From: Astropecten irregularis | Taxonomy: Eukaryota > Echinodermata > Asteroidea > Paxillosida > Astropectinidae | Length of the DNA: 64,000 nt | Direction: 5' to 3' | NCBI GenBank assembly: GCA_963971285.1 | Contig: OZ020244.1 | Span: 34,286,001-34,350,000 of the forward strand | In this document: positions 11,657 to 42,691 of the stretch, one piece after another | Position numbering within the stretch: the stretch's first letter is position 1 | How the letters are laid out: each line of letters begins with the position of its first letter | Made by a program: the position numbers and the translations under genes | Notes under the pieces: generated by a model | The model's database searches: none | What the model was told of the DNA's origin: nothing | Seen by the model: the letters and a program-made list of their open reading frames with translations, nothing else

Positions 11657-11660
11657 TTAA

Positions 11661-22169: not shown

Positions 22170-22170
22170 C

Positions 22171-23060: not shown

Positions 23061-23067
23061 GCGGAAA

Positions 23068-23143
23068 CACCATGTAATAATCGTTCGTACTTTCGCACTT
23101 CTATATCATTCGCACTTCTCTATCGTTCGCACTTCTCACAATT
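23068..23143. repeat. short tandem repeat of CGTTCGCACTTCTC
   Basis: About four imperfect copies of a 16-17 base unit (TCGTTCGTACTTTCGCACTTC, TCATTCGCACTTCTC, TCGTTCGCACTTCTC). Confidence 0.6.
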
Positions 23144-23360
23144 AGGTCTCAACATTTCGACTAGTCTGCTCTAGTCCTCATCAAGCTGAATCAAGTGCCC
23201 TAAAAACTCAAAAAGATACCAACATGTTTTGCGATCCCGGCATTGTTGGGAAACCCTCACGCAGTTGTCATCACTTTGACCTCAAGTGACACAAGATAAG
23301 CAGCCGCTGTCATAAATGTCTGTGTACATTCGGAAGTACGATTTGCTGCATTTATATCCT

Positions 23361-23538
23361 TAGTCTAGCGTGCTAGATGCTGTTGATGCGCGATATCCTG
23401 CTACCGCGAGAGGGCGTTTCATGACCAGCCGCTTGCCATGCATGACTTGACTAATCGACAAGTCGTGGCTGGTTATGATACGCTCTCCCGTGGTGGCGGG
23501 ACATCAGGCATGATCAATGTCTAGTACACTAGATTATT
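23361..23538. repeat. hairpin element, long arms (about 80 bp)
   Basis: Left TAGTCTAGCGTGCTAGA continues through CCTGCTACCGCGAGAGGGCG and TTTCATGACCAGCCGC. The right side inverts this (GCTGGTTATGATACGCTCTC, CTAGTACACTAGATTA). Almost the whole 178 bp is stem. Confidence 0.75.
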
Positions 23539-23807
23539 ATATCCTAGGAAAATGTACCAACTGCAAGAATTCTTTTTACCCAGGACTGGCCAGGAGTAAA
23601 CAGGTACTATGTACAAGGAGGGAGACGAAGAGGCAGACAGAAAAAGAGAGATAGGAGAATAACATCACAGAATGGACAGGGCTCAGTCTGAGATTGCACA
23701 AAACAGAGAAGGTTGGAGAAAGGTTCTTGACAGAGTTTCTGTGGTGCCAGTCCCGAAAGTTAACCAGACTTAAATGTGGGGAAAGAGATGGCTCTACTAC
23801 GAATTCA

Positions 23808-23911
23808 ATGGGAGACTTTTGGAGAGTTGGTCTTGAGTCAACAGCGCACAAGTAAACCATGCTTGCGCAATTGTGAGCATGCGCCCGTTGTATTCTCCAA
23901 AAGTCTCCCGT
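23808..23911. repeat. E-family MITE, short copy
   Basis: ATGGGAGACTTTTGGAGAGT at the left and CTCCAAAAGTCTCCCGT at the right; the GTCAACAGCGCA word survives only on the left arm. The longer frame on the - strand across it is spurious. Confidence 0.7.
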
Positions 23912-24154
23912 TACAAACAGCAGCAGCAGCCAGGTGGGTGGCACATTCCCAGAAAGTTGAGAGAGTTTCAGAAGTGACGATTGACCTTCGTGACCAAGAA
24001 AAAGACATACCGGTACTGTCAAGTGCAAGGACATTTGTGCTACACAAACACAAATCACTGTTATAAAGGACATCCAAGATGATTCAGCAAAGTCGAGCAA
24101 AACAGACCCAATTTCTCTGTTTATTACAATCACAATTCCACTTCTTGTAGTTAA

Positions 24155-24516
24155 AGGTAGTATGATACTTTGGTAAGGAACTAAAAACAGAAATGTTCAC
24201 AGATTTACGTATAACTTACAGGGTATGGAGAAAAAAAAATTATACCCTGGTATAAACATACCGTTAAAATGTTTCCGCCTGAAATGGTGTATTTAACCAG
24301 AAATTAGTAAAACAACGACCGAAAATCTTTTTGATCTTTTAAAAGATCAAAAATAAAAGAGAAGAGACTTAAGAAATACTGTTTTTCACTGTTTTCTCAA
24401 AAAGTGGGCACCGTATGGGACTGAAATTTTCACAGATGACTTTTACTGTATCTTCCTTGATATATTTGCCCATGAATATGTATTTCTTTGACAAAAACCA
24501 AAGTATGATATTACCT
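24155..24516. repeat. B-family MITE
   Basis: TTAA at 24151-24154, TTGA after the right end; AGGTAGTATGATACTTTGG start. Contains GATCTTTTAAAAGATC. Confidence 0.85.
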
Positions 24517-24741
24517 TTGAATACTCTATATCACAGATTCTCTTTCCCTGAAGAAGAAGCATGCATGCACACTTTAAATATATGCAAACAATGTCTTGCT
24601 AACTCCTCAGACATGCTTGCAGTATGCGTATAATTTCTCTATAAACTTTAAGCCAAAGCTGTTTTTATTTTGCCATGAACTTAAATGCCCCGGCAAATGC
24701 TCATCAACTGTTTACTATAAACTACAAGAGAAAAAGAAACA

Positions 24742-25062
24742 ATGTCTGTCAACCCCGTGAGATTAAAACTCTTGCTGGAGATGAGCATAGCATTCATCGT
24801 GATCACGTCCAGTCCATCGGAAGCTTCCATGATCAAACATAAAGGAGAAAGCATCTTAGGAATGAGCGGTATGAGCATGATGATGAAGGATGACCTACCC
24901 ACCAGCTGTGGGCCTGACTGCCAGGCATTGGCTGACGGCAACCTTGGCCTTTTGTTGGGTTATTTCCAAGCCAGCAGGACACAAACAGAGCCCGGCGGCT
25001 GCATAGTTACATTAGTACACATATATACTCATGTAGCGGCATGCTACGGATGTTATCAATAA
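24742..25062 (+). CDS. small open frame with signal-peptide-like start (doubtful)
   Basis: A 106-codon frame beginning M-S-V-N-P-V-R-L-K-L-L-L-E-M and continuing A-F-I-V-I-T-S-S-P-S-E-A could be a cleavable signal peptide. It is followed by a short Cys-containing stretch (S-C-G-P-D-C). AATAAA overlaps the stop codon. There are no flanking splice signals, paralog or recognisable family. The region is not one of the identified repeats. More likely a chance frame than a gene, but worth a transcript check. Confidence 0.12.
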   Translation: MSVNPVRLKLLLEMSIAFIVITSSPSEASMIKHKGESILGMSGMSMMMKDDLPTSCGPDCQALADGNLGLLLGYFQASRTQTEPGGCIVTLVHIYTHVAACYGCYQ

Positions 25063-25402
25063 AACCAATTTGCGTGACAGTAGCTGATTGGCATGAATGC
25101 CTGTGAAGAGCCTAACAGATACGCAGTCAGTGATAGCTTTACAAGCGTGTTTGTATCACAAACCATGGAGGTATACCTCCATGCACAAACAAATCCCTAA
25201 TTTCCAGAATCAATCAAAATAAACAAAGCTAAGGCAAGTGAGCAAATGATTTAAAAAACAACAGCTTCCAAGAACCATTAATCTTTAACACGTGTATGTT
25301 GTCAGCATAAATTTACATTTATGTACATTGTATATTTCCTTTTTCTTAAATCAGAATAAACTTTTTTGGGTGTAATGCTTTAACTTTCATTTCATAGATT
25401 AA

Positions 25403-25855
25403 AGGTACAATACATGATTGGTAAAGTCACAGGACTGCACTCATACTTTGTCTGACCAAACATGTACATGAAATAATAAACCTGTGAAAATTTGAGCTAA
25501 ATCGGACATCTGGGTCACGAGAAAATAGCGAAAACCCGACTCAATTTTTCTTATAAAACATGAAGAATGATTTTGATCTCACCCCGAGATCAAAACTGTT
25601 TTCGGTCTTTGGTTTACTAATTTCTGGATAAATACAGCATTTCAGGTCTTCATACTTTGAGTGAAAGGGGATAACTAAAACAACTCAAGTGAGGGTGTCC
25701 TTTATGTTTCTTCCAAAAATCGTTCGGATGGAAAAGACACTAAATCTTGATTTCCTTGAAAAACCCAGCATCTGATGAACCAAGATTTCCCATGGTGACT
25801 GTTTGCACTGTTTACGAACTGTTTAGTCTATTTTCTGTCTCAAACTCATCAATTT
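25403..25855. repeat. C-family long variant
   Basis: TTAA at 25399-25402 then AGGTACAATACATGATTGG, followed by the same two-module arrangement as at 19194. It abuts the tandem duplication at 25870. Confidence 0.6.
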
Positions 25856-27219
25856 TTCTTTTGGAGGCCTTGCAATTACTCTCTTTAAATGTACATCATT
25901 CATACAAATTCATACATCTAGTCATTTATTTCACAAACTCTAACAAGAATTCCACCACCATGGTCATAGACAAGGACTTCAAAATAAACTCATTTCAATG
26001 CACTAATGTAATCCTGTCAACAGAGGGCTCACTGCTCTCTTAAGCCTTTAATCTTTCATAAAAAAAAAATCAATAAAAAAAACATAAAGAAAAATAATTC
26101 AACCTCCGAAAAAAGATCCTGCTAGGATCGAAACACATCAGGCCCTTCTTACTCCAAGCATTTGATAAATTTCAGATCATTATTTTTATAGCTGATGAGC
26201 AATTTGCAGTGCAGTTTAATACTTAGTATAAAAAAAATTCTACTCTAACATACACCAAGATTTTTAAAGAGATCTCCTCAAGAAACTAATTTAAACTGTC
26301 AATCACAATCATGAAAACTTGAATACCAGTAACAAGCTTTTACTTTGGACGGCCTAACATGTAATTTGTTATTCCTCCTGCTAGGATGGAGATATTAGAC
26401 TCTCCAAGAGAAACTAAAACTATTTAATTGTTGTCAACAGAGGGCTCACTGCAATTCAATTACAAGCACAAACATTAATGACCAGTTAAATGCCTTTCAT
26501 AAAAAAAAATGACATTGCATTTATACCACATCACAGCTACACAGGAGGAATAACAAATACACGTACCTACTGGGCCAGCATGGAAAAAGGCAATATCTAT
26601 CTACAGTGAATTACCAAATTAGCCTCAGATTCACACAGACAATGTAAAGGATGTCCCCAGATTATAAAGTTAAGGAAATAATGCATGATGAATGCTCATG
26701 AACACAAAGGTATTCAATTAAACTTCATCCGGTGACAAATGAAAAGTTTCATTCTCCAAAGCAAAGATCAAAACCTAGGGGATCATGCTACAACCTGTTG
26801 TGGATACCGTACTTGAGAAATGTTGGCTTAACATCTGGCCCTACATTGTTTTTAATGTGAAGAGTTGCTTCATGGAAACTGGTAGCAGGTCGGTTATGGA
26901 AAAAGGACATTTTGAGGGGTGTGTTTTTTCTTGGGGAAATTATTAAAAAATTTAATTGGCTGACAAACAAAAAATTGAAAAGGATTAGTTACATGAGGGT
27001 TCAAAGCAAACTAGGTACCATTTGCAGTATTGCACTGGTCAAAACTGAGAGACTCATGGATGAGGATTTTTGAACTCTGAAGTTGACGGTGTTTGCACTA
27101 TTTTGTCAATGGGGGTCATGAATATTTGAGTTTGGTAAACCTCATAGGTAACCTGTTATTATTTTCTTATTTGCCCATTCAACCGTGACTAATAGAGGGC
27201 AGCATAACATGGCCAATAG

Positions 27220-27702
27220 GGGTGCACCACACTAAATAGCTCAAAAATCAATGCGCCGAGCTGATTATCATAATGTGTGTACCCTCAAATGTTTTTTAAA
27301 TATGCAATTTGGGGGGTCGTGCAATTAATATATTGTGTAGTTTTGACTGGTTATGACAACCTGGGGGTTCAGTGCTTCAGCCTGTTGTGTAGACTTGAGA
27401 AATTTTGGCTTAAAATGTGGAACTACATTGTTTTGAACGTGGTAGGTTGCTTCATGAAAACCGGCTGCAAGTTGGTTCGGGAAAATGGAAATTTTGGGGG
27501 TGTTTTTTTCTTGGGGCAATTAGCAAAAAATCTGATCGGCTAACTATCAAAAAATTGAAAGGAATCGGGCAGATGAGGGTTCAAGCTTTGTTTTGAATTA
27601 TTGCACTAATCACTGAGAGACTCCTGGATGGGATTTTTTTAACTGTGAAGTTGACGTATTTTACACTAAAGTCAATGGGAGTTTATTTAGTGTGGTGCAC
27701 CC
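27220..27702. repeat. I-family MITE in duplication copy 1
   Basis: Ends GGGTGCACCACACTAAATA and TATTTAGTGTGGTGCACCC, a perfect 19-bp inverted pair. 483 bp, non-coding. Left-hand neighbour DNA (CCATTCAACCGTGACTAATA) recurs to the right of the third copy. Confidence 0.9.
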
Positions 27703-27934
27703 TATAGTACACAAGATGGCGGCGCATCGGAAGCCATTTTGTGATAGCGCCACCACTCTGTTTTTAGAGGCGAGAACGGAAAAAAGCTGTATAAGACCAA
27801 GTTTTTCATCAGATTTTGTTAAATATTTCCCGAAAACATCATTTTTAATACGCATAAAACCTTGTATTACACAAATACACTGTCTTTTCTACACACTACA
27901 AGTTTTGTTTAGACGAAGGTGGCCCAACTTTTAA

Positions 27935-28130
27935 CCCCAGTAGACCCAAAATTATAACCCTAGCTGGCCGAAATTCCAACCCCATCCCCTAAATTGTAAC
28001 CCTAGCCCCCAAAATTCAACCCTATGACCAGTTCTTAACCCTAAATCTCTCTGATTCCAACCCTAACCCCAGCCGGGGCCCCAGACCTAGACCCAACCCT
28101 AGCAAGCCCCGCCCACCCGCTGACAACCCT
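27935..28130. repeat. degenerate AACCCT-rich minisatellite
   Basis: Six or more units of about 20 bases with the core AAATT..AACCCTA followed by C-rich DNA. Repeated in copy 2 at 30296-30491. It resembles telomere sequence (CCCTAA) only in the core word; the spacing is irregular. Confidence 0.6.
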
Positions 28131-28230
28131 AATGGCTTCTTTCTCACTTTTCAGAGGGGAAATGATATTCTCAAGAGCAGCGAAATTTGGTGAAATGTAA
28201 TATGCATTGATTAATCCCATAAAAAGTTCA

Positions 28231-30591
28231 TTGCAATTACTCTCTTTAAATGTACATCATTCATACAAATTCATACATCTAGTCATTTATTTCACAAACT
28301 CTAACAAGAATTCCACCACCATGGTCATAGACAAGGACTTCAAAATAAACTCATTTCAATGCACTAATGTAATCCTGTCAACAGAGGGCTCACTGCTCTC
28401 TTAAGCCTTTAATCTTTCATAAAAAAAAAATCAATAAAAAAAACATAAAGAAAAATAATTCAACCTCCGAAAAAAGATCCTGCTAGGATCGAAACACATC
28501 AGGCCCTTCTTACTCCAAGCATTTGATAAATTTCAGATCATTATTTTTATAGCTGATGAGCAATTTGCAGTGCAGTTTAATACTTAGTATAAAAAAAATT
28601 CTACTCTAACATACACCAAGATTTTTAAAGAGATCTCCTCAAGAAACTAATTTAAACTGTCAATCACAATCATGAAAACTTGAATACCAGTAACAAGCTT
28701 TTACTTTGGACGGCCTAACATGTAATTTGTTATTCCTCCTGCTAGGATGGAGATATTAGACTCTCCAAGAGAAACTAAAACTATTTAATTGTTGTCAACA
28801 GAGGGCTCACTGCAATTCAATTACAAGCACAAACATTAATGACCAGTTAAATGCCTTTCATAAAAAAAAATGACATTGCATTTATACCACATCACAGCTA
28901 CACAGGAGGAATAACAAATACACGTACCTACTGGGCCAGCATGGAAAAAGGCAATATCTATCTACAGTGAATTACCAAATTAGCCTCAGATTCACACAGA
29001 CAATGTAAAGGATGTCCCCAGATTATAAAGTTAAGGAAATAATGCATGATGAATGCTCATGAACACAAAGGTATTCAATTAAACTTCATCCGGTGACAAA
29101 TGAAAAGTTTCATTCTCCAAAGCAAAGATCAAAACCTAGGGGATCATGCTACAACCTGTTGTGGATACCGTACTTGAGAAATGTTGGCTTAACATCTGGC
29201 CCTACATTGTTTTTAATGTGAAGAGTTGCTTCATGGAAACTGGTAGCAGGTCGGTTATGGAAAAAGGACATTTTGAGGGGTGTGTTTTTTCTTGGGGAAA
29301 TTATTAAAAAATTTAATTGGCTGACAAACAAAAAATTGAAAAGGATTAGTTACATGAGGGTTCAAAGCAAACTAGGTACCATTTGCAGTATTGCACTGGT
29401 CAAAACTGAGAGACTCATGGATGAGGATTTTTGAACTCTGAAGTTGACGGTGTTTGCACTATTTTGTCAATGGGGGTCATGAATATTTGAGTTTGGTAAA
29501 CCTCATAGGTAACCTGTTATTATTTTCTTATTTGCCCATTCAACCGTGACTAATAGAGGGCAGCATAACATGGCCAATAGGGGTGCACCACACTAAATAG
29601 CTCAAAAATCAATGCGCCGAGCTGATTATCATAATGTGTGTACCCTCAAATGTTTTTTAAATATGCAATTTGGGGGGTCGTGCAATTAATATATTGTGTA
29701 GTTTTGACTGGTTATGACAACCTGGGGGTTCAGTGCTTCAGCCTGTTGTGTAGACTTGAGAAATTTTGGCTTAAAATGTGGAACTACATTGTTTTGAACG
29801 TGGTAGGTTGCTTCATGAAAACCGGCTGCAAGTTGGTTCGGGAAAATGGAAATTTTGGGGGTGTTTTTTTCTTGGGGCAATTAGCAAAAAATCTGATCGG
29901 CTAACTATCAAAAAATTGAAAGGAATCGGGCAGATGAGGGTTCAAGCTTTGTTTTGAATTATTGCACTAATCACTGAGAGACTCCTGGATGGGATTTTTT
30001 TAACTGTGAAGTTGACGTATTTTACACTAAAGTCAATGGGAGTTTATTTAGTGTGGTGCACCCTATAGTACACAAGATGGCGGCGCATCGGAAGCCATTT
30101 TGTGATAGCGCCACCACTCTGTTTTTAGAGGCGAGAACGGAAAAAAGCTGTATAAGACCAAGTTTTTCATCAGATTTTGTTAAATATTTCCCGAAAACAT
30201 CATTTTTAATACGCATAAAACCTTGTATTACACAAATACACTGTCTTTTCTACACACTACAAGTTTTGTTTAGACGAAGGTGGCCCAACTTTTAACCCCA
30301 GTAGACCCAAAATTATAACCCTAGCTGGCCGAAATTCCAACCCCATCCCCTAAATTGTAACCCTAGCCCCCAAAATTCAACCCTATGACCAGTTCTTAAC
30401 CCTAAATCTCTCTGATTCCAACCCTAACCCCAGCCGGGGCCCCAGACCTAGACCCAACCCTAGCAAGCCCCGCCCACCCGCTGACAACCCTAATGGCTTC
30501 TTTCTCACTTTTCAGAGGGGAAATGATATTCTCAAGAGCAGCGAAATTTGGTGAAATGTAATATGCATTGATTAATCCCATAAAAAGTTCA
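28231..30591. repeat. 2361-bp tandem duplication, copy 2
   Basis: Direct repeat of 25870-28230. The homology ends at 30591-30593; bases TT are shared at the breakpoints, so microhomology is minimal. Contains the second fresh I-family copy at 29581-30063. Confidence 0.9.
29581..30063. repeat. I-family MITE in duplication copy 2
   Basis: Same as 27220-27702, carried along by the tandem duplication rather than inserted separately. Confidence 0.9.
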
Positions 30592-31034
30592 TTATGTGTC
30601 TCAGTATGGATACTGGGGCAGAAATATTCCACTGAACAAACGAAACGCCCCCCCCCCCCCTAAAAAAAACAAAACACGTGCCAACCTTGACCTTACACCA
30701 CTTTTCCGTGTGAAATGACACCCTCACCTTGATTAATTAAATTATATGTAATGGCCGGAGCATCATTGCATCCTAAAATAGGCATAAAATAACTTTGTGA
30801 GAAAATAATATGTGGATTCAGAGCCCGACTTTCCATGGGGTGTACACAATATTATAAGGGAGAATGTGCACGTTTGTATGGCCACCACGGGTCAACGACC
30901 TAACACATTAAGCCGTGCCGTAGAAAAACGCAATCATATTTTTCAATTTTGTTTTCACATATGAGATCAGTGTCATAAACTCTACATTTTGAGCCTAATT
31001 GGACAACCAATTTTGAAAGTTTACCCCCCTTACA
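30592..31034. other. no gene recognised (30.6-31.03 kb)
   Basis: A C-run at about 30649-30660, then AT-rich DNA without recognised repeat or exon. Confidence 0.5.
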
Positions 31035-31517
31035 GGGTGCACCACACTAAATAGCTCAAAAATCAATACGCCGAGCTGATTATCATAATGTGTGTACCCT
31101 CAAATGTTTTTTAAATATGCAATTTGGGGGGTCGTGCAATTAATATATTGTGTAGTTTTGACTGGTTATGACAACCTGGGGGTTCAGTGCTTCAGCCTGT
31201 TGTGTAGACTTGAGAAATTTTGGCTTAAAATGTGGAACTACATTGTTTTGAACGTGGTAGGTTGCTTCATGAAAACCGGCTGCAAGTTGGTTCGGGAAAA
31301 TGGAAATTTTGGGGGTGTTTTTTTCTTGGGGCAATTAGCAAAAAATCTGATCGGCTAACTATCCAAAAATTGAAAGGAATCGGGCAGATTAGGGTTCAAG
31401 CTTTGTTTTGAATTATTGCACCAATCACTGAGAGACTCCTGGATGGGATTTTTTGAACTGTGAAGTTGACGTATTTTACACTAAAGTCAATGGGAGTTTA
31501 TTTAGTGTGGTGCACCC
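31035..31517. repeat. I-family MITE, third copy
   Basis: The same 483 bp and the same 19-bp ends as the copies at 27220 and 29581, with about five visible single-base differences. It lies outside the tandem block, so it is a separate, recent insertion or copy. To its right, CCATTCAACCGTGATTATAG repeats DNA found to the left of copies 1 and 2. Confidence 0.9.
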
Positions 31518-31775
31518 ATAGCCAATGGGGTAAACTTGAATATGGTGCCCTCATAGGTGACCTGTTATTTTCTTATTTGCCCATTCAACCGTGATTATAG
31601 AGGGCAGCATAACATGGCCAATGGCCAGCAGGGTAACTTGAATATGGTGCCCCTATTTGTGGTTCTCCAGCTGTGAATTTGAATTCAATGCCAAATATTC
31701 CTCACGATTAGACTGAATAGAAAGAGTACAGGTAAAGGTACACTGTTATGGTACCTGATGAGCATTACTAGAAGC

Positions 31776-31985
31776 CTTTTCACACTATGAACGTTCGACC
31801 CGTGTTGGAATCTACACGGGTCCGATCCGTGTTGAAATCTAGTTTTTCTACACGGGTCCGATCCGTGTTGAATTCTTAAAATTTCAACACGGGTCACTTT
31901 CGATCAGTTTTCACACTACTCAGTGCAAGACCGGCATTTGCAATGTTTCGAACCGTGTATTGCGTGATCGTTTCACACTACACAC
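31776..31985. repeat. MITE with TTTTCACACTA ends and ACACGGGTCCGATCCGTGTT words
   Basis: CACACTATGAACGTTCGACC on the left and GTGATCGTTTCACACTA on the right. The palindromic word ACACGGGTCCGATCCGTGTT occurs twice and related GACCCGTGTTG forms twice more. Confidence 0.6.
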
Positions 31986-31989
31986 AGGA

Positions 31990-32790
31990 TCGGGCTTTCA
32001 ACACACGTACAAAAATAAAATTCCCCATACAGTATTGCTGTGCGTTAGGCCTTCACTCTCCAATATGGAGGCGCCCAGTAATTTTCAGACGATGTTCGTG
32101 TTGTTCATGTATTCCAAGTTGTAGCCTTTGAGAAAGATCCTGCAAGGATCAGGCCCTCCTAACTCTAAGCATTTGTTGTATTATTCCATGGTTTCTCTGT
32201 ACATTTTCAACAGCCTATTTATCTTAATAATATAGTGTATTAACATCCAACTCATTTCACAGAGCAGGTATCAACATGTAACGACCAGAGCAATGATTTG
32301 CAAAAAGCCATTTGACAGGTTCTTCCAAAAGCACGTTTGTCTCAATTTGTGAGGCTACTTTGAAGAATATCTTTATACTGAACATAGTACGCAATAAATG
32401 CACCAGGCTTTCCCACACTAATGACAACAACCGAAATTGTAGTCTGTAAAAACACCAGCCATTAGCCATGCAGTATTACAACATTTAATCAGCAGGGAGC
32501 AAAAGGAAACGAAAATAATTTTTTGTTTTCTTACTAAGGAGGGTATCTTCAAGTTACACTGACAGGAGCACTATTGGCTTGTTACTAAGGGTTCAATATA
32601 CTACATGTCTGCATTAAAGCCATTATGCAAAATGGAAGATAAAAAAAGATATATCTATGATCATACTCCATGGAGACAGTCTCTAATTGGTGGGAAATCC
32701 CTGAACTGATGGAAAACGGAGGCTGTCGTTAAAGGGTTTTTAATGAACGTTTTAAAAATATTCTTGAAATAACCACAAAACGATCCCTGG
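31990..32790. other. no gene recognised (31.99-32.79 kb)
   Basis: AAAGATCCTGCAAGGATCAGG at 32133 is a fragment of a repeat also seen at 26112, 28474 and 38935. Otherwise no repeat or exon is supported. Confidence 0.45.
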
Positions 32791-32798
32791 GGTGTGGC

Positions 32799-34292
32799 AG
32801 TGTTCTCCAACTTTGAAAATTAAAGGGTGGTGCTGAGCGCGTAGCGCGAAGCACTAACGGCGTGGGGTCCGGGGCCCGCTTAAGGGCCCCGGGAAAATTT
32901 GGATTCCAGATGCTCTGTGATGCATTCTAAGGCAATTTCTGTCCACTTTAACCAAATTTTTTTTATGTGCAAAAGTTGTCAAGATTTTTATAAGACTTCC
33001 ATTTATTAAGCACAAAATTATTAAACAGAACATCAAATAAAAGATCAGTACCGACTCTTTGTTCCAAAATGTCATTTTTCAGTTATTGATCTAGGAAGCT
33101 AAAATGTGTTAGAGCAAGCGTTTTGTTTTAGGGTTATTAATTAATAAGATTTACCCTATTAACAATTTTAACAAACATATCTAATTTTATTCACGTCCAA
33201 AATTAGACAAGAGACTTGGTCCCACATTCGAATAATAATTTGGAAAATCAGTTTAAAACCGAAGAAAATATGTCTAATGGTCGAGCAAAAATATTTAAAC
33301 CTCAAAATTCCAAAAACATTGGAATAAAACTTAAAAGTGGCCACAGCTTAAACAAATTACTTAGGTAGACCAGTTTTTAATTTTCGATACCATATTTTAT
33401 GGGCCTAGGTAGACATTATATTCAGTAAATTTCACAGAGAAATCAAGAGAAAATTACATTCATTCCAAACGAAACGTGATGACAGATGACAATTTATAAG
33501 TAAATCTTAGCTAAGAGCGAAAATCATCCAATAACAGGTGAGCATTAAAAGTTTCCGTGTACCAAGGTACGTAACGTTGCTATCGTGACCGAGCGGACCG
33601 TTGACCGGTCGCACGAAGCATTAGTCCCACGGCCATCACACGGCACATCGCGGTAAGTTAAAATCCCGTTGTGGCAAGATTAGTGTCAACTAACAAGTTA
33701 CAGTTGCAATCGCAAACTCAACTTTTTGTATTCATTTGTCACTCATAATTTCCCAAAATTACTTCTTATTTCATGTGAATGTACGATAAATCATCGAAAA
33801 TGTAGTTTGAATAAAGCAAGCTCATTCAAAATGTCGAATTTTCGGAAGAATTTCGTCTAAGTTTCGCGTAAACGTAACCAGATTTGTGACCACGTGCGCA
33901 GACCGTATGCAGCAAAAGTAGGTCTATTGCAGTGCAGAACGTATGCAGCAAAAGTAGGTCTCTTGCAGTGCACGTGTTTAGCAAGGCCGGTCGACTCGCT
34001 GTCTCCCCTTAGTACATGCGTTTAATATATAACAATTCGAGGTGCCTCGCGTCGAAAATTTGACAGTTCGTGCGAAATCATTGGAAAGTTTCGATGGTTA
34101 GAATCGAAAATAAAGTGATTCTCATTGTTCCCAGATTATTTATGTAGTAATTATTTACTGTACATTAAAAAATGTAAACGTTGCGGCATGATTTTAAAGC
34201 GTGGCGGCGATTTTTAAGCATGGCAGTAAAATGGCGGCTGCCGCAGAAAGCGTGGCGGTGCGCCACGTCCGTTCTACACGTTGGAGAACACT
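32799..34292. mobile_element. hAT-like non-autonomous element with 8-bp target duplication
   Basis: Perfect 13-bp inverted ends AGTGTTCTCCAAC / GTTGGAGAACACT, flanked on both sides by the 8-mer GGTGTGGC (32791-32798, 34293-34300). An unoccupied copy of the same site is visible at about 34608-34640 (GATCCCTGG-GGTGTGGC-GGTGTGTGCG), which fixes the insertion point. Eight-base duplications and ends of this type are characteristic of the hAT superfamily. The 1494 bp contain no long frame, so mobility would need a transposase supplied elsewhere. A roughly 41-bp direct repeat (GTATGCAGCAAAAGTAGGTC twice) lies at 33903-33975. Confidence 0.9.
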
Positions 34293-34337
34293 GGTGTGGC
34301 GGTGTGTGCGTGGTGTTATGGCTTCTGACTGCCAAAC

Positions 34338-34464
34338 GAACAAAGATAGTTGACTATTGGGGTCAACACCAACGTAGGGCTGGATGGCTCAGTTGGTAGA
34401 GCGCCTGTACGGTATTCAGGAGGTCGCTGGTTCGAATCCCGCTCCAGTCAATCTTTCTTTGTTC
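34338..34464 (+). repeat. tRNA-like unit enclosed in inverted repeats
   Basis: GAACAAAGATAGTTGACT left and AGTCAATCTTTCTTTGTTC right. The tRNA-like part folds best here: acceptor GGCTGGA with TCCAGTC, D-arm GCTC/GAGC, B-box GGTTCGAATCCCG. It belongs to the larger repeat whose left part (GGTGTGTGCGTGGT) was hit by the hAT-like element. Confidence 0.75.
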
Positions 34465-34663
34465 ACTTTTCAATGACTTAAAAACTCAGTCAGTTTCCCT
34501 TGTCGTTATTTCACGAATATATTAATTAAAAAGCCGTATCCTAGGCTGTTTGAGTGATCCCCCATGTGCCGTTCCCAGGTTGCAGCATTGTTGCGTGTAT
34601 CATTGAAAAGATCCCTGGGGTGTGGCGGTGTGTGCGTGGTTTTATGGCTTCTGACTGCCAAAC

Positions 34664-34790
34664 GAACAAAGATAGTTGACTATTGGGGTCACCACCAACG
34701 TAGGGCTGGATGGCTCAGTTGGTAGAGCACCTGTACGGTATTCAGGAAGTCGCCAGTTCGAATCCCGCTCCAGTCAATTTTTCTTTGTTC
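34664..34790 (+). repeat. tRNA-like unit, second copy of the pair
   Basis: Nearly identical to 34338-34464, with a few changes in the A-box to T-arm part (GAGCACC, AGGAAGTCGCCAG). Together with its upstream flank it supplies the empty site for the hAT-like insertion. Confidence 0.75.
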
Positions 34791-34984
34791 ACTTTTCAAT
34801 GTTTTAAAAATATATTAATTTGATTTTCCTCCGCATCTGTTTTTTTTTCTTTCTCGAAATAAATCGCACCCCATTAGCATTTAGTTTTTTTTTTAGAAGA
34901 GTGGCACAGCGTCCAACTTCAAATTGAATAAACATCTTTATGAAACAAAACAAGTGCATTTTTTGGCACTGAGCGTTGGTACTG

Positions 34985-35165
34985 TGCATGTACTCGGCGA
35001 GGACTCAAACTTTTGAACTTGGACTCGGCCTTGAATGTACTCGTACTATACTTTGGACTTGGGACTCGTCAGCAATACTTGGACTCAGCCCAGTACTCAT
35101 CCCCTTGAAGTACTCGGAGTTCTCTGTACTCAGACTTGAGGACTTGACTACAGCACAACACTGTT
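34985..35165. repeat. motif-laden repeat of RACTYG words
   Basis: GTACTCGG, GACTTGG, GGACTCGG and TACTCGTAC words fill 180 bp. The right end CTACAGCACAACACTG resembles a hAT-type terminus in inverse (CAGTGTTGTGC). Compare 640-1180 and 39271-40095. Confidence 0.5.
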
Positions 35166-35544
35166 AGTAGGACACAACATTCGTCACCCAGAACTACTAG
35201 CATGTGAAGTAATTCTTTGTGAATCACGCCAAGGAAAACAGGGTTGAAACCAAAAACTAGATTAGCATGCTGAAGAGGGACACCGATCTAGACAACACCG
35301 AGGAGCTAAAGACTGCCATGTTGGATAGAATGGCTTAGAGGGGATATGTTCATGGTGACTGAGTAGACATTGGCTATTATAAAATCACATGTCTTCTCGA
35401 CATAGTAGTAGTTTTGATGTGTGTGTGGACGGGCCCAATATGTTCATTTTGTAATGGAGTGCCACTAGGCTATTTTTTGAAATTAGGCAAGAGGAAATCA
35501 ATTAAAATGTCAGGTTAAAATCCAGTAGACCCTACAGATGACGT

Positions 35545-35718
35545 AATAGCGTTCCGCACTAATGACGTCACACCATTCATGCACGCGCACACATACCCCA
35601 ACCATGGAGGAAGCTCTATTTCTTCCTCCATGCCCCAACTCACCACACGTTTGCATGGCCGGTTGCAATGTTTGTCTGAGATTCGGTGCTATTTTTAGCG
35701 CAAGTGCGTAGCGCTATT
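35545..35718. repeat. D-family palindromic MITE
   Basis: AATAGCGTTCCGCACTAATGACGTCA at the left and AGCGCAAGTGCGTAGCGCTATT at the right. Carries an extra insertion with CCATGGAGGAAGC / CTTCCTCCATG inverted words. Confidence 0.75.
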
Positions 35719-36162
35719 GCCATACGGAATACATATGAGCAGACTGTGGATTCTAGGAACTAGAAACACAATGCCCTGCAAATAGAGGGCGGTATTGTGG
35801 ATGTGGGCAAAGCACTCTGGGAAACATAAAGTTGCTAGGGCTGGCGCTGAGTGTGCATACTACATACGGACATACAACTGAACTATGAATACATGTAAGT
35901 ACTAAACTTTACACCGCTGGAACAAGATACTCAATAGTAACATTCCATGGACCGTTGTGCAGCAGCATCATTATAACAACTCGAAGTAAGGATTTTTTCT
36001 AGAAAAAAAGTAACTTAATTAATCTTTGCGGGCCGGCAGGTTTATACGAATCTATCTACGCGTGTCAACGCGTGTGGTAAAATTACCCATTGTGCTTTGC
36101 ACGCGCATGCGTAGTGCCGACAACATTATTTTTTGATAAGGTCCATGGGGGAGGAGTCCATA

Positions 36163-36250
36163 TTTGGATACAAAATGGCAGATCATATATCAATACACAA
36201 TACTGCATTCTCCTACGGTACACATATTGAGACGCCATTTTGTATCCAAA
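36163..36250. repeat. 17-bp perfect inverted pair
   Basis: TTTGGATACAAAATGGC at 36163-36179 and its exact inverse at 36234-36250, separated by 54 bp. Confidence 0.7.
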
Positions 36251-36372
36251 ACTTAACGCTGTTGCTATTCTCTCTGTTAATAGACTCTAGTCCATGCATC
36301 ATTACGATTCACGGACTAAATGGCATTATTGGTTGAAGTTGTTTTTATGTGAGATTGAATAAATAGACTCAC

Positions 36373-36438
36373 CGCTGTGTAGCTCTGGATGCTAATGTTG
36401 TCCCCATCGCCGTCAATATCGTCATTCCGTCTGCCTTT
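36373..36438 (-). CDS. unrecognised gene, exon 5
   Basis: CCTCAG acceptor, GTGAGT donor, 66 bases, phase 0 to 0. Codes K-G-R-R-N-D-D-I-D-G-D-G-D-N-I-S-I-Q-S-Y-T-A. It shares GACAACATTAGC with exon 4 at the DNA level. Confidence 0.65.
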
Positions 36439-39400
36439 CTGAGGAAAAAATATGACAGCACCAGTAACATCCAGTTAATACCACATTCAATCTTTATTAG
36501 CCATTAACAAAATCAATCAAAGAAATTAATTTAAAAAAAAGTTTTGTTCAAAGATGCAACGTCCATGTTGAAGTTAAAATACATTGCAGTCATTGTACCC
36601 TACCGATCTGTACATTAACTGGTTTATAATGCTTTATGTGATAAACTTAACAACCAAGAAAAGTGGTTCTGAATTCCATGATGTGCATGTCTTCTCGAAG
36701 AGGTAGCCAGTGACCAATTTCATAGAGCTGCTTTAAAGGGAGCATAAAGGATTTGCAAAGATGTACGTTTTGGCTGAATTCAATTAAACAGAAATGCTAA
36801 AAAGATCATTCGGACGAACGATCTTTTTAAAAGACACTGAATCTTGATTTGCTTGAAAAACCCAGCATCTGATGAACTAAGATTTCCCATGGTGACTGTT
36901 TGCACTGTTTACGAACTGTTGAGTCCATTTTCTGTCTCAAACTCAAGCATTTTTTTTGGAGGCCTTGCAAATCCTGTACGCTGCTTTTAAGCACCAAAAA
37001 TTCAAAACTGCTTAAGCACCAAAACCCTTGGTAAATAAAATCAGCATGCCACACAAAACTCCTTATGAATGTGAAACAACGGCTGAATACGAGTCAAAAG
37101 CACTAAACATCAAATGAAAATTTGGTTGGTAATCCTGTTTGATCAAGGAAGACTTTTCATGCTTAAGCAAATATTGTGCTTAATCAGCTCTATGAAAACC
37201 CCAGAGCATAATGATCACAAACATGTTTCTCAGAAAAAATTGCCAAAGTTTCAATTGAGTTATAAACCCTTCCTTCCCCTCCGTAAAAAAACAATAACAT
37301 TTGGGCAATTCCAGTGTAATGGACATGACAATCACACAGTTTTGCCTTATTCAAAGGATCACAAATTAGGATTGGCAGTTTGCAAATTGAATATTTTCAA
37401 TTTGAGTAACAATTTTGATTAACAATTTTGAGTAACGGACATGACACCAAATGCCACTTAGTGTCATGTCCATTACGGTCACAAGAAGTGCATTTTTTCT
37501 ACAACTATTCAATGAAATTACATAAAATTTACTACATATGTCACTGATAGTTAAAAATTAAAATTTTTTGCAAACTGCCAATCCTCTGAATAAGGCAAAA
37601 ACTGTGTGATTGTCATGTCCATTACACTGGAATTGCCCAAATGTTATTGTTTTTTTACGGAGGGGAAGGAAGGGTTTATAATTCAATTGAAACTTTGGCA
37701 ATTTTTTCTGAGAAACATTCTGCCATTCAATATAATTTGGAGCTAATTTATGTTTCAGATGTTTTACCTTCCTGAGATTCAGACTGCTGACGCTAATGTT
37801 GTCAAAGTCAGCATCCGCCACACTGCGTTTTCTCTGATTGAAACAAAAGAGAACATTCAATGTAAATGAAGGGATGTATTAATTAAGACTTGTTCTAATT
37901 ATTATAATTGAGAGATAAGGGACAGTGCGCGTGATCATGCCAGCATACGAGAGCATGTCTACCTGTTCTAGTAAATGATAACATTTACTTTTGGAATAAA
38001 AGAATAATAATAAGAAAAGTGGATTAAAAGAGATTAAATGCTAAGATTCAGAGTCAGTCGGAGATTGTTCGGGATAGGAGGAAGACTGCTGAGTTTACAG
38101 CAGGTTGAATTAAATTCACGAAGTGCGCACATAAATTAAATGATTCCATTGTTCATTGCCTCTTTCTTACTTTCTTCGGCTCAATTGAAACCCTGACTCA
38201 AGAAGCAGCCCCCAAGTCTCGCAAGAGATAACTCTACATAAACAATCAGCAAGACTGGCCAATAGCACTCCGCACTGATGACGTCACATGAGTGTACAAA
38301 ATCCCCGGATGTCAGACAAACATTGACTCACACATGCAGTGTACACCATGCATGCATTCGCGCGCACACACCACACATTTGCATAGTCGCAATGTTTGTC
38401 TGAGCTAGTGTGTTATTTTTAGCGCAAGTGTGGAGTGCTATTAACAGAAGTTGAAGTCGGTTTGTAGTAGGACGCTCTCTGATATATCATAAAAGGGACA
38501 ACGTCTCAGCCTCATTTGTGACCTTAAATTAAATAAAAGAATTGATATTCGGTAAATAATTTCCACCCACAAAACAATGCATTAGCAAGCCCGGAAATAA
38601 ACGGAGGCCTTGGAGGCCATGGCCCTAGTTGCCCTGGTTTTTGGCATTGGTGCCCCCTTCAAATGTTTCCATACACATTACGATTTTCCAATGGAAGTGC
38701 CACTTGCAATGGAAAATTAGCCTTGCCCTGACCAAACGTTATTTCCAGCCCTGCATTTGGTTGCCATCCAAATGTATCAGCAAAATCCATCAATGAGGGC
38801 AGCAAACAAATCTCAATAAAATGGTAACATCACTTTTGTGATCCAATTTCCTGCCAAAAAATGCTTGACAATGACAAAAGTGTGGTTTCTTTCACTTGCA
38901 TGTTCTTGTCCACTCGTCATTTAGCCCTTCAGAAAGATCCTGCTAGGATCGAAACGCATCAGGGGCCGATTTCATAAAGCTCTGCGACGCGTCGCAACTA
39001 TGCGGTGAGTCCATAGAGAAAGGATGGACTTAACTCTTAACGTCTTAACTGCGACGCATCGTAAGTTTTATGAAATCGGCCCCAGGCCCTCCTAACTCCA
39101 AGCAATGACAAAAGACGTTAGACTCTGCTGCTTGATGACACAAGTCAGAATAAAGTGGTTTGTTTTATACCTTACTGCCAATACTGCTGAATCGGATACT
39201 TTCATCCACGCCCTTCTTTCTTTTCCTCAGAGTCTGACAAAATACACAAAAATGCATGATTAGCAAAATGCAGAGTTGTAATGACTCGAGTCAATGACTC
39301 GACTCGAGTCTGACTCGAGTCACATTTTTTGGCGACTCGACTCGAGTCCCGAAGGCTAAATGACTCGACTCGACTTGAGTCATTGTGAGCAAATGACTCG

Positions 39401-42400
39401 ACTTGACTCGACTCGAGTCTCTCATCAGAATGACTCGACTCGACTCGAGTAAGGCTAATAATGACTCGAGTCCCCCCTACCCGCCCCCCAAAAATAAAAC
39501 TTTGCGAAATATTTTATTTGAACTTACGCGCATCGCCATCGCGACTTTGTATACATGGGGTATAGAAGTATCAGCTTCCATGCACGATGCTTACAGTATG
39601 CATCAAATTACACTGGTTCCCGTTCCCTACCGTTATCTCCTCACGTCTACGTCACTCAAATTTGTGTATTGGCCATCGGGAAGGGAACCAGTCTAGCGAC
39701 AAACATACACCATGTCGCCATGTCGCGTTACGTACTCCCTCCCACTAGCACTATCTTGTGGTTTTGTAAATCCACGACTAAACCAGACTAAAGTTTCACA
39801 ACTGTGATATGTGCATGTAAATGTGTTTCATCACAGGTTGTGACCCGGATGTACCAGTAAATTAAAAAACAAAGCAAACAAATTCCAGTCTCTTGGTGTT
39901 TGTTTATTTCTAAATATTTGTGACTCGAATTGACTCGATCTAAATAATTGACTCGACTCGACTCAACTACACACTGTGACTCGACTCGACATTCATGACC
40001 AATGACTCGACTTGACTCGACTCGACTCGAGTCACTTCTTTAAAATGACTCGACTCGACTCGAGTCACAAAAAACAGTGACCCGTTACAACTCTGGCAAA
40101 ATGTTGAGGAAATAGAAAGTCCTATCTCTTGAATTGTTGATCAATTGATGAATTGATAACTCAGCTAGGGATGTTCCACAAACTGGCTTAGTAGGTTTTA
40201 CTAATAGCGCTCCGCACTAATGACGACGTCACATGAGTGATTTGGCCAGCGCGCGCATGTACAAAATCCCCGGATGTCAGACAAGCATTGACTCACACAT
40301 GTAGTATACACCATACATGTACCATACACGTTGCAATGTTTGTCTGAGATCCGGTGTGACGTCACAGCATTTAGCCTGCTATTTTTAGCTCAAGTGCGGA
40401 ACGCTATTAATTAATAACCACTTTATTTGTCACATGCTTTCAGTGCACTTACTCTCATAAGGGTTTTCCCAGACTTTGGTTTGGCAAACTTGCTGTCATT
40501 GTTACTTTGTGAACTTGGCCTGTGACAAAGGGAGAGTGAGAGAACAAAAAATGAAACTTTTATAATGTAAAAGTAGTACTTACCCTTCCTTTGTTGGATA
40601 CCTATTGGTCATACTAACTGCCAACCAACCAACAACTCATACTGAAAATTACCAACAAGAACCAACATAAGTCGTCTGTAACTGTAAATATGCTAATGAA
40701 GCAAGATAGCAAACAAGATGGTGACCAAAAGTACTACTACAACAAACAAAACACTTCAGTTTTGGACCCAGTTAAAAAAAAAAAGAATAGACACATGTCG
40801 TTACTTCACTGATTGATAGTTTATAAAAATTTCTGTTAATTTTAGCGATATAAATGTTAATTTCAGTTGTTGTTTATAGTTGATGTCAGTCGATTTTAGG
40901 ATGACTCTTAGTTATAGATCTAATGTCATGTAGACACCATAAACGATAGATCTACAAAGATCTTTCAAATGAGATGTTGCACATGATCAGGTGGTTAAAT
41001 AGTATCCACAAGTGAAACGTGTTCAGAACCTTTTAACATAGCAGGTAGCAATATTTTAAAAGTAATATTTCAAAATCCCGAACTAGGAACCGCTGACTCT
41101 TAACTTTATAGTGAAATAAAAGTTAAAGAAAATGTGCGGGCATCACCGGAATGTCTCAACCTTTAGTAGACCAAAAAACTTAGGTGCTGTACTCAATTAT
41201 TTATTTTTAGGACTGGGCTGGTTGTAATAACACCCCAGAGAATTGTACTTTTTCATATGTCATGCGAGGTTTGTCTCACATGATCTACAATTCTGGCAAA
41301 CGTTTTCCCTGAAATTTTGAAAAGAGAAGCTTTGGGATAATTTCAATTTTCAAGCCAATTGTTGATATCTTTGTCGTCATAATTTGGGGACACTTTTCAG
41401 TTTTCAGCACAAGTACAGTTTGCTTGGGGGTGTAAAATCTTGTATGACATACAATTCTCTGGGGTGCTGCTAGTACAACTATGGAATCCCAGAATAAAAA
41501 AAAGGGAGTACATTGCTGAAGTTACTGGGTCTAGTTTCAACAGGTTGTCATTATCCATGACAAACCTTGACATGTACATGTAGTGTTGACATGAAATAAA
41601 TCAGGCCTGGAAATTAAAATTTGGGACAAATTAAAGTCAATCCTATAGTATTTAGAAAAGTGAACAAAGACGGGGTTACCTCAGTTTAGTACACTCAGGT
41701 TAACTGGTACCCAGACCCAGTCGTATTTAGGTGAATTAGTTTACTGTAGAAGCTGGGTACCAGCTACCCCGAGTGTACTAACCCCAGGTAACGCCACAAA
41801 GACAAATTTGACTGGAGTGGGATTCGAACCAACGACCTCCGAAATACTGTACTGGCGCTAATAATAACAAATGAGTTAGTTACCTAGCCAAGTTGGTAAG
41901 AGTGCCAGTGCAGTAGTCAGTATGGTATTCTGGAGATCACTGGGTCGAATCCCGCTCCAGTCAATTCTTCTTTGTTCACTTTTCAAAGACTTAAAATTAA
42001 CCAGTCTGTTTGTCATGTTTGTGGTTATTTGATAACAAAAAATTGTGTAAATAAATAAGTAAATAAAAACAAACACATGAATGGTAGAAAGCAGATAGGC
42101 CTAGCAAGTACTGCATGTGCTGGACAATTATTTCTAGCTTTGTTTTAGTCTGAGTAACTTGGACCCTAAAAATCGCCTTTTTTAACATTTGGACATGATC
42201 TTGCGATAGTATCGCCAGATTTTTAGGATCCAAGTTACTCGGACTAGCTTCGTTTATGGTGGCCATATGGCCAGATCCACCATGGATCTAGTCTAGAGCA
42301 GAGGTAGTCTACCTCCATGGATCCACTTACTAATTTACTGCACACTTGGCCTAACTTACTCGATTTTTGGAATGAACTGGAAAATTAAAACACTGAAGTT

Positions 42401-42691
42401 CACACTCTTTTTAAATCCGAAATTAGTAAAACAAAGGACAGGCCATCTCTTTACTTCGTGCCACTTCGTCATTCACCTGTTTTTATCGGGAGATTCAGTC
42501 GAATTGTTGTTGCAAAAGTCTGTCTCGTCATCAAACGACGAAGCACAACCTGTCAAACTTGGCCTCCGTCCGCGTGCTCTGGGACTGCTCCCTGTTTCGC
42601 TGCCCGATCTCGCACGGAACTGCATGGCAGCGATACGCGGCGACCGTCTCACCTCAACCTGGGGTTTAGCACTTGTCGATGTTTCATTCAT
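36373..42691 (-). CDS. unrecognised gene, 5' part (exons 1-5, 159 codons, incomplete)
   Basis: On the - strand five segments join in frame: 42691-42477, 40519-40453, 39233-39171, 37833-37768 and 36438-36373. The ATG at 42691 has G at -3 and an in-frame TAG upstream. Exon 1 ends in phase 2 and exon 2 restores it; all later junctions are phase 0. Each junction has AG and GT. Exon 1 codes a low-complexity segment with R-R-S-P-R-I-A and R-G-R-R-P-S-L. Exons 2-5 are short and alternate basic clusters (L-R-K-R-K-K, a possible nuclear localisation signal) with acidic, serine-rich stretches (D-F-D-N-I-S-V-S-S). This suggests a disordered, probably phosphorylated nuclear or regulatory N-terminus. No stop follows exon 5, so the gene continues to the left beyond what could be traced, perhaps to 14.0 kb. 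No family was recognised. Confidence 0.65.
36800..36975. repeat. fragment of the C-long second module
   Basis: AAAAGACACTGAATCTTGAT .. CCCATGGTGACTGTTTGCAC .. TTTTGGAGGCCTTGC matches 19560-19675 and 25735-25870 but without the C-family left part. Confidence 0.6.
37223..37718. repeat. 500-bp inverted repeat, arms about 150-160 bp
   Basis: The left arm (37223-37385) and right arm (37567-37718) are nearly identical in inverse orientation, apart from a short indel near the inner end. Both contain GTAATGGACATGACAATCAC. The spacer itself has a smaller palindrome around GGACATGACAC / GTGTCATGTCC. It lies in intron 4 of the unrecognised gene and would form a long double-stranded RNA in the pre-mRNA. 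Confidence 0.85.
37768..37833 (-). CDS. unrecognised gene, exon 4
   Basis: Acceptor CAATCAG, donor GTAAAA, 66 bases, phase 0 to 0. Codes R-K-R-S-V-A-D-A-D-F-D-N-I-S-V-S-S-L-N-L-R-K. A 500-bp inverted repeat begins 49 bases downstream of its donor. Confidence 0.65.
38261..38442. repeat. D-family palindromic MITE
   Basis: AATAGCACTCCGCACTGATGACGTCA at the left, AGCGCAAGTGTGGAGTGCTATT at the right. Inner pair CCCCGGATGTCAGACAAACATTG / CAATGTTTGTCTGAG. In intron 3 of the unrecognised gene. Confidence 0.85.
38963..39082. repeat. F-family MITE with CAG target duplication
   Basis: GGGCCGATTTCATAAAGCTC at the left and ATGAAATCGGCCC at the right, with CAG on both sides. The same site without an insert is present at 26112-26160 (AACACATCAGGCCCTTCTTACT), which confirms the three-base duplication. 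Confidence 0.9.
39171..39233 (-). CDS. unrecognised gene, exon 3
   Basis: Acceptor TTTTGTCAG, 63 bases, phase 0 to 0 with donor GTATAA. A nearer GTAAGG five bases upstream is a stronger donor sequence but would break the frame into exon 4. Codes T-L-R-K-R-K-K-G-V-D-E-S-I-R-F-S-S-I-G-S-K. A hAT-like element lies only 37 bases upstream of its acceptor. Confidence 0.6.
39271..40095. mobile_element. hAT-like non-autonomous element full of GACTCGA words
   Basis: Inverted ends CAGAGTTGTAAT / CGTTACAACTCTG, flanked by a perfect 8-bp direct repeat GCAAAATG (39263-39270, 40096-40103). The outer 200 bp on each side are packed with ACTCGACTCGAGTC words in both orientations. The 420-bp centre is ordinary sequence. 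The 8-bp duplication and motif-laden subterminal arms fit a hAT-type element. 825 bp, no transposase frame. It sits in intron 2 of the unrecognised gene. Confidence 0.88.
40203..40408. repeat. D-family palindromic MITE
   Basis: AATAGCGCTCCGCACTAATGACG at the left and AGTGCGGAACGCTATT at the right. It has a second GTGACGTCAC near the right arm that other copies lack. Confidence 0.8.
40453..40519 (-). CDS. unrecognised gene, exon 2
   Basis: Acceptor TTGTCACAG and donor GTAAGT, 67 bases, completing the split Arg codon of exon 1. Codes P-S-S-Q-S-N-N-D-S-K-F-A-K-P-K-S-G-K-T-L-M-R. Confidence 0.6.
40584..40613 (-). CDS. candidate 30-base microexon between exons 1 and 2
   Basis: Between a GGCAGTTAG acceptor and a strong AAGG|GTAAGT donor lie 30 bases that keep the phase of the exon 1 / exon 2 junction. 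They would add about ten residues (S-M-T-N-R-Y-P-T-K-E-G around the junctions). Inclusion may be alternative. The evidence is splice consensus and phase only. Confidence 0.25.
40620..41660. other. intron 1 of the unrecognised gene, no exon recognised
   Basis: AT-rich DNA between exon 1 and the microexon candidate. No repeat family is recognised up to 41.66 kb; a shadow frame at 41397-41579 has no support. Confidence 0.4.
41663..41977. repeat. two tRNA-like halves in a palindromic unit, split by a nested hairpin
   Basis: The outer ends GAACAAAGAC..AAATTTGACTGGAG and CTCCAGTCAATTCTTCTTTGTTC are inverted. Just inside them are B-box words in opposite orientations (GGATTCGAACC on the left, GGTCGAATCCC on the right), so two tRNA-like halves face each other. 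A separate hairpin interrupts the left arm (next entry). Confidence 0.7.
41672..41795. repeat. hairpin element nested in the tRNA-like unit, 8-bp duplication
   Basis: Ends GGGGTTACCT / AGGTAACGCC, long arms containing TTAGTACACTC and CTGGTACCCAG inverted. The 8-mer ACAAAGAC is present on both sides (41664-41671, 41796-41803). It interrupts the GAACAAAGAC-AAATT arm that is continuous in the other copies. Confidence 0.85.
42147..42245. repeat. hairpin element with AGTCTGAGTAACTTGGACCC ends
   Basis: Left AGTCTGAGTAACTTGGACCC and right GGATCCAAGTTACTCGGACT are inverted, with CTAAAAATCG continuing the stem. About 99 bp, loop with TTTTTTAACATTTGG. Confidence 0.7.
42477..42691 (-). CDS. unrecognised gene, exon 1 (start)
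   Basis: ATG at 42691, frame open for 71 codons and two bases to a CAG|GTGAAT donor. An upstream TAG closes the frame 30 bases before. Serine-, arginine- and proline-rich (S-P-R, R-R-P-S), then acidic (F-D-D-E-T-D-F). It is more GC-rich than the DNA on either side, as expected for coding DNA. Confidence 0.6.

What the first reader, a model, noticed from the sequence alone, without database searches (positions are those of the whole stretch)
36373..42691. Unrecognised minus-strand gene built from short, similar phase-0 exons
Five exons join without a phase error, with a supported start codon. Exons 3, 4 and 5 are 63, 66 and 66 bases, all phase 0 to 0. Each codes the same pattern: a basic cluster, an acidic stretch, then (D)-N-I-S-x-x-S or I-R-F-S-S. 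Exons 4 and 5 still share GACAACATTAGC at the DNA level, which suggests exon duplication. Symmetric exons of this kind can be skipped freely, so the number of basic/acidic modules may vary between isoforms. No known family was recognised.
Basis: partly seen in the sequence, partly recalled or inferred. Interest (0 to 1): 0.7.

Follow-up and report, generated by a model that had tools for sequence, protein, structure and literature searches.

The report
Front end of a NET1-type RhoGEF gene
The five short exons look real, but they are most likely the front end of a known kind of gene (a NET1/ARHGEF3-type activator of the GTPase RhoA), and the repeated small exons may carry its signals for entering the cell nucleus.

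Summary
"No known family" does not hold. The gene leaves the window on the left: exon 6 lies 4.5 kb beyond the edge, exons 7-13 further on, all joining in frame to 583 residues with RhoGEF and PH domains. Its best solved relatives are NET1 (E 1.9e-112) and ARHGEF3 (2.6e-107); the next family is at 9.7e-24. No second such gene was found in this genome. The modules resemble a basic/acidic segment of the NET1 N-terminus (recalled sequence), a terminus reported to hold nuclear localisation signals (PMC2386254, PMC3044157; passages), though the passages do not say in which segment. Exons 4 and 5 are alike; exon 3 resembles the human segment but not exons 4 or 5 directly. Skipping these phase-0 exons would lower the count of NLS-like motifs from three to none; that idea is untested. 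A new member of a known family, of low to moderate interest.

The parts
42477..42691 (-). Exon 1: start codon, MNETSTSAKPQVEVRRSPRIAAMQFR...; phase 0 to 2
   Evidence: upstream in-frame stops; part of the best chain
40453..40519 (-). Exon 2, 67 nt, phase 2 to 0, Ser/Lys-rich linker
   Evidence: its codon score is negative (-5.6)
39171..39233 (-). Exon 3, 63 nt, phase 0-0, TLRKRKKGVDESIRFSSIGSK; NLS-like KRKK at residue 98; weak donor (score -0.1)
   Evidence: 14 of 5000 shuffles reach its score with the recalled human NET1 segment
37768..37833 (-). Exon 4, 66 nt, phase 0-0, RKRSVADADFDNISVSSLNLRK; KRKR motif completed across the exon 3/4 junction
   Evidence: 2 of 5000 shuffles reach its score with the recalled human NET1 segment
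36373..36438 (-). Exon 5, 66 nt, phase 0-0, KGRRNDDIDGDGDNISIQSYTA; KKGR motif completed across the exon 4/5 junction
   Evidence: 0 of 5000 shuffles reach its score with exon 4, but 437 of 5000 with human NET1
1..36372 (-). In-window part of the predicted 40,828-nt intron 5; exons 6-13 of the model lie left of the window (window-relative -4456 to -23034)

Best explanation
The five exons are the N-terminal, non-catalytic part of this animal's NET1/ARHGEF3-type RhoA guanine-nucleotide exchange factor (the stated confidence is for this identity). Shown by sequence: 13 predicted exons joining in frame to 583 residues with an N-terminal basic/acidic region, a conserved linker (STRRSRTLVKVTSLASLVSPV), a DH domain, a PH domain and a C-terminal -ATDV. 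Inferred (about 0.6): exons 3-5 encode nuclear localisation signals. Importin binding to the KRKK/KRKR/KKGR clusters would hold the exchange factor in the nucleus, away from most RhoA; loss or masking of the clusters would release it to activate RhoA elsewhere. Inferred and untested (about 0.15): because each of exons 3-5 is phase 0-0, skipping them sets the strength of nuclear retention.
For: Linking exon 6: score 69 against the recalled human NET1 linker, next best 37 for that query in stop-free six-frame segments of 84 kb; splice sites and phase 0-0. Model of 584 codons with stop, 12 introns, no frame error. Pfam RhoGEF E 1.7e-36 and SOS1/NGEF-type PH E 1.5e-16, both over their curated cut-offs. 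PDB: NET1 4xh9 E 1.9e-112, ARHGEF3 2z0q 2.6e-107, NET1 3eo2 5.2e-69, next (ARHGEF11) 9.7e-24, of 56 sequences matched. Exons 1-5 against recalled human NET1 1-85: 3 of 1000 shuffles reach the score. Exon 4 and exon 3 against the human segment: 2 and 14 of 5000 shuffles; their scores (40, 33) exceed the maximum (25) of 528 control pairs from the rest of the protein. Three K-K/R-x-K/R motifs in residues 1-240, all in exons 3-5 or on their junctions. Passages: the amino terminus of NET1 holds multiple NLSs and its deletion gives cytoplasmic active NET1 (PMC2386254); two NLSs within the N terminus (PMC3044157); deleting the NLSs moves NET1 to the cytoplasm and activates RhoA (PMC3044755, which does not say where they lie in the passages seen).
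Against: No transcript was available: the join across the 40.8-kb intron 5 is predicted, and the other four window introns are 1.2-2.0 kb. In the unconstrained six-frame search with the 42-residue human query, exon 4 ranked third (40, behind chance hits at 42 and 41) and exon 3 (33) lay among chance hits. Exon 5 against the human segment is weak: score 21, 437 of 5000 shuffles, below the control maximum of 25. The alignment of exons 1-5 with NET1 1-85 is gap-rich. For the NLS reading: the passages seen do not place NET1's NLSs in the segment that matches exons 3-5; the recalled ARHGEF3 has no such segment, yet a review reports overexpressed ARHGEF3 in the nucleus too (PMC8841341). Import and skipping were not tested.
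Confidence: 0.88

Rival explanations
1. Exons 1-5 are a separate small gene for a basic/acidic disordered protein that ends inside the 40.8-kb interval, and the RhoGEF has its own first exon.
For: Intron 5 is about 20-30 times longer than introns 1-4. Phase-0 terminal candidates exist, e.g. 22644-22615 (score 10.4) and 34328-34194 (5.6); a candidate first exon that would join exon 6 in phase 0 lies at 18873-18778.
Against: Exons 1-5 resemble the recalled NET1 N-terminus (3 of 1000 shuffles), and order, strand and phase fit NET1. Terminal candidates in phases that cannot join score as high or higher (20.3 at 9352-9169), so these scores carry little weight.
Confidence: 0.08
2. NET1-type gene, but exons 3-5 are not NLSs: they are another regulatory or protein-binding segment, for example akin to the mTORC2-binding N-terminus described for ARHGEF3. 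(Not exclusive of the gene identity above.)
For: ARHGEF3 residues 1-125 bind mTORC2, and ARHGEF3 is reported in the nucleus (PMC8841341, passages) although its recalled N-terminus lacks a counterpart of exons 1-5; the modules also share Ser-rich ends.
Against: Three K-K/R-x-K/R motifs fall on these exons or their junctions and nowhere else in residues 1-240; NET1's NLSs are reported in its N-terminus.
Confidence: 0.35
3. The five-exon chain is a chance assembly of splice-like sites.
For: Real 6.5-kb windows give chains scoring up to 39.5 against 52.0 observed.
Against: None of 40 shuffles and none of 20 real windows reaches 52.0; similarity to recalled NET1.
Confidence: 0.02

Closest known systems
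Human NET1 (neuroepithelial cell-transforming gene 1), long isoform
   Same: DH-PH core (E 1.9e-112); linker (score 69 against the recalled sequence); N-terminal basic/acidic SSL-type segment (recalled); C-terminus of PDZ-ligand type (-ATDV here; -ETLV in NET1, recalled)
   Different: One such basic/acidic segment in the human sequence as recalled, against three exons here; exon 1 poorly conserved; only about 10 residues after the PH match here, a longer tail in NET1 (recalled)
Human ARHGEF3 (XPLN)
   Same: DH-PH core (E 2.6e-107); LQRSMSFR here against LQRSISFR (recalled; alignment)
   Different: No counterpart of exons 1-5 in the recalled ARHGEF3 N-terminus: the local alignment begins only at exon 6

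Membership tests
NET1/ARHGEF3 subfamily of Dbl-type RhoGEFs | DH (RhoGEF) domain | tested here: met
   PF00621, residues 249-426, profile 1-180 of 180, E 1.7e-36, 126.5 bits against cut-off 27.6
NET1/ARHGEF3 subfamily of Dbl-type RhoGEFs | PH domain directly after DH | tested here: met
   PF22697, residues 453-570, E 1.5e-16, 61 bits against 27.7; the general PH model PF00169 stays below its cut-off (20.9 against 25.1)
NET1/ARHGEF3 subfamily of Dbl-type RhoGEFs | closer to NET1 and ARHGEF3 than to other RhoGEFs | tested here: met
   56 PDB sequences matched; first three NET1, ARHGEF3, NET1 (E 1.9e-112, 2.6e-107, 5.2e-69), fourth 9.7e-24; no tree was built
NET1/ARHGEF3 subfamily of Dbl-type RhoGEFs | conserved pre-DH linker (SNKRVxPLxRVTSLANLIxPV, recalled) | tested here: met
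   exon 6, score 69 (NET1) and 55 (ARHGEF3), human sequences recalled
NET1/ARHGEF3 subfamily of Dbl-type RhoGEFs | N-terminal nuclear localisation signals (NET1) | tested here: inconclusive
   three NLS-like motifs in exons 3-5 and similarity to the recalled NET1 N-terminus; import not tested
NET1/ARHGEF3 subfamily of Dbl-type RhoGEFs | C-terminal PDZ-binding motif | tested here: inconclusive
   protein ends -ATDV, which fits S/T-x-hydrophobic (motif rule recalled); binding not tested
NET1/ARHGEF3 subfamily of Dbl-type RhoGEFs | exchange activity on RhoA/RhoB | not testable with these tools
   needs a biochemical assay

The most novel reading that the evidence does not exclude
In this animal lineage a basic/acidic NLS exon of NET1 was copied in tandem into three frame-neutral exons, two of whose basic clusters are completed only across the exon junctions, so that alternative splicing dials the number of nuclear localisation signals (3, 2, 1 or 0) and thereby the share of a RhoA activator kept in the nucleus.
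Probability: 0.15. Interest if true: 0.5.

Novelty: new member of a known kind. Interest (0 to 1): 0.27.

Why it matters
It turns an apparently unknown gene into a relative of a medically studied RhoA activator. Only one NET1/ARHGEF3-type gene was found here (with a 146-residue piece); together with the N-terminal likeness to NET1 this suggests that the N-terminal region predates the split that gave vertebrates both NET1 and ARHGEF3 (the split is recalled knowledge; no tree was built). If the three module exons are alternatively spliced, the gene would offer a natural series for asking how NLS number sets nuclear retention.

Tried and rejected
A nuclear or mitotic protein such as sororin, from the RRSPR motif (recalled lead): two requests with PF09666 did not complete, and the lead was dropped, untested, once the RhoGEF exons appeared. 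A DBF4-like zinc finger at about 8.6 kb minus (zf-DBF, E 0.016, 15.7 bits against a cut-off of 24.8): the frame around it is broken by stops, rejected. Pfam scans of the three minus-strand frames of window 1-36.4 kb gave otherwise only a TipE match at E 0.68, far below its cut-off. Phase-0 exons inside intron 5: a 33-nt exon GKRICDIEYSK (24547-24515) and terminal candidates; no homology support was found for any. A short-isoform first exon inside intron 5: 18 ATG-to-donor candidates (donor score over 2), best scores against the recalled short NET1 and ARHGEF3 N-termini 16 and 19, i.e. no likeness.

Module number in other species, transcripts and splice isoforms could not be looked at: no other animal genomes or RNA reads were at hand. 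No paper on duplicated NLS exons in NET1 appeared in the rows listed; two searches listed only 20 of 32 and 10 of 66 papers, the library is partial, and no search was made for exactly that, so this is not proof of absence.

Full report
What was claimed. A minus-strand gene of five short exons at 36373-42691, unrecognised, with repeated basic/acidic phase-0 modules in exons 3-5.

The observation. The exons, splice sites and phases are as stated and give 159 residues. In-frame stops precede the ATG. I built a simple exon scorer: codon preferences from 1817 codons of kinesin exons of the same genome and generic splice matrices recalled from memory. Exons 3, 4 and 5 are among the best-scoring of their region; exon 2 did not make that list, its codon score being negative (-5.6). 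So the gene is more than chance, though the margin over real DNA is moderate.

The modules. Exons 4 and 5 are alike: 0 of 5000 peptide shuffles and 6 of 5000 codon shuffles reach the observed score. Exon 3 is not alike to exon 4 (1839 of 5000) or exon 5 (3110 of 5000). The introns around them share no DNA beyond dispersed repeats. 'Exon duplication' is thus supported for 4 and 5, and only indirectly for 3.

What it is. The 159 residues alone match nothing in Pfam at E up to 1 or the PDB at E up to 10. In the own genome they give six rows: five are the exons themselves and the sixth (E 5.0) is noise. No terminal exon could be found with confidence in the window. I therefore fetched the contig to the left. 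The exon scorer showed strong minus-strand exons there, including RSMSFRTSHSPP...KRRDSVLWSETVQSNINEGLTKRQIKRQE and LPTLTNVYTAYCTNLLAAKVLLDEKRQDKKVHDFLERCQESPFSRRLDLWNFLDVPRRRLIKYP, which I recognised as NET1/ARHGEF3-like. I then searched stop-free six-frame segments of 84 kb with the recalled human NET1 and ARHGEF3 linker. One segment stood out: STRRSRTLVKVTSLASLVSPVSSVKKVGIALQ, score 69 with NET1 (next best 37) and 55 with ARHGEF3 (next best 38). It lies in a 102-nt phase 0-0 exon with good splice sites. Two last exons lie further left. Together 13 exons, 584 codons with the stop, no frame error, G000:C1:34262966-34328691; introns of 1957, 1219, 1337, 1329, 40828, 8538, 822, 3225, 607, 374, 1233 and 2505 nt.

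Family. Pfam finds RhoGEF (residues 249-426, E 1.7e-36) and a SOS1/NGEF-type PH domain (453-570, E 1.5e-16). Of 56 PDB sequences matched, the first three are NET1 4xh9 (1.9e-112), ARHGEF3 2z0q (2.6e-107) and NET1 3eo2 (5.2e-69); the fourth, ARHGEF11, is at 9.7e-24. With a 146-residue DH/PH piece the own genome gives this locus twice (two exons) and one remote match (29% identity, E 4.2e-5) elsewhere, so no second NET1/ARHGEF3-type gene was found; a strongly diverged one could be missed. Exons 1-5 against recalled human NET1 residues 1-85: 3 of 1000 shuffles reach the score, in a gap-rich alignment. Exon 4 and exon 3 resemble the human segment FTLKRKRREKDDDVVSLSSLDLK (scores 40 and 33; 2 and 14 of 5000 shuffles; maximum of 528 control pairs 25); exon 5 only weakly (21; 437 of 5000). 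The human N-termini were recalled and could not be held against a record here. Against: an unconstrained six-frame search with the human N-terminal query ranks exon 4 third, behind two chance hits, and leaves exon 3 among chance hits.

How it probably works. Papers, seen as passages only: NET1 sits mostly in the nucleus, and deleting its NLSs moves it to the cytoplasm with activation of RhoA (PMC3044755); its amino terminus has multiple NLSs (PMC2386254), or two (PMC3044157). A review tells of two isoforms, Net1 (longer) and Net1A, and of JNK, CRM1 and Rac1 control of Net1A export (PMC7913530). ARHGEF3's residues 1-125 bind mTORC2, and overexpressed ARHGEF3 is also seen in the nucleus (PMC8841341). 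None of these passages places an NLS in the segment that matches exons 3-5. In this protein, in residues 1-240, the motif K-K/R-x-K/R occurs at 98 (exon 3), 115 (across the exon 3/4 junction) and 137 (across the exon 4/5 junction) and nowhere else; residues after 240 were not scanned for it. Skipping exon 3, 4 or 5 leaves 1, 2 or 2 motifs; skipping 3+4, 3+5 or 4+5 leaves 0, 0 or 1; skipping all three leaves none. Dense basic hexamers (4 or more K/R in 6) also occur three times after residue 240, so basic residues alone do not prove an NLS. I infer that exons 3-5 are NLS exons; whether they are skipped in real transcripts is unknown.

Verdict. A real gene of a known family whose recognisable half lies outside the window. 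The possible tandem multiplication of an NLS exon is a minor and untested novelty.

Noticed in passing
47308-52254, + strand: Exons of a SEC13-like WD40 gene (identity recalled; WD40 E 5.2e-9 in one of two plus-strand frames scanned; exons), head to head with the NET1-type gene, whose start codon is at 42691.
   Followed up: partly
about 25901-30560: A tandem duplication with offset 2361 nt: 23 hundred-base steps are over 85% identical, and the six of these that were printed are 100%. Very recent, or an assembly artefact.
   Followed up: partly
15915-15987, 34378-34450, 34704-34776, + strand: Three tRNA-Thr (anticodon GGT) genes inside the predicted intron 5 of the NET1-type gene, on the opposite strand.
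   Followed up: no
55798-56759: A 26-nt minisatellite of 37 copies, open in several frames; it gives a Pfam 'Galanin' match of 11 residues just below the cut-off, probably spurious.
   Followed up: no
37223-37718: A 121-nt inverted repeat, 99% complementary, in intron 4: possibly a young fold-back transposable element.
   Followed up: no
39283-40074: An interspersed run of GACTCGACTCGAGTC-type palindromic repeats in intron 2.
   Followed up: no
18873-18778, - strand: An ATG-to-donor open stretch (MKYGPGADFIKLCDASQLDLRRVVAAMRRIYA) that would splice in phase 0 to exon 6: best scoring of 18 candidates for a short-isoform first exon, with no homology support.
   Followed up: partly
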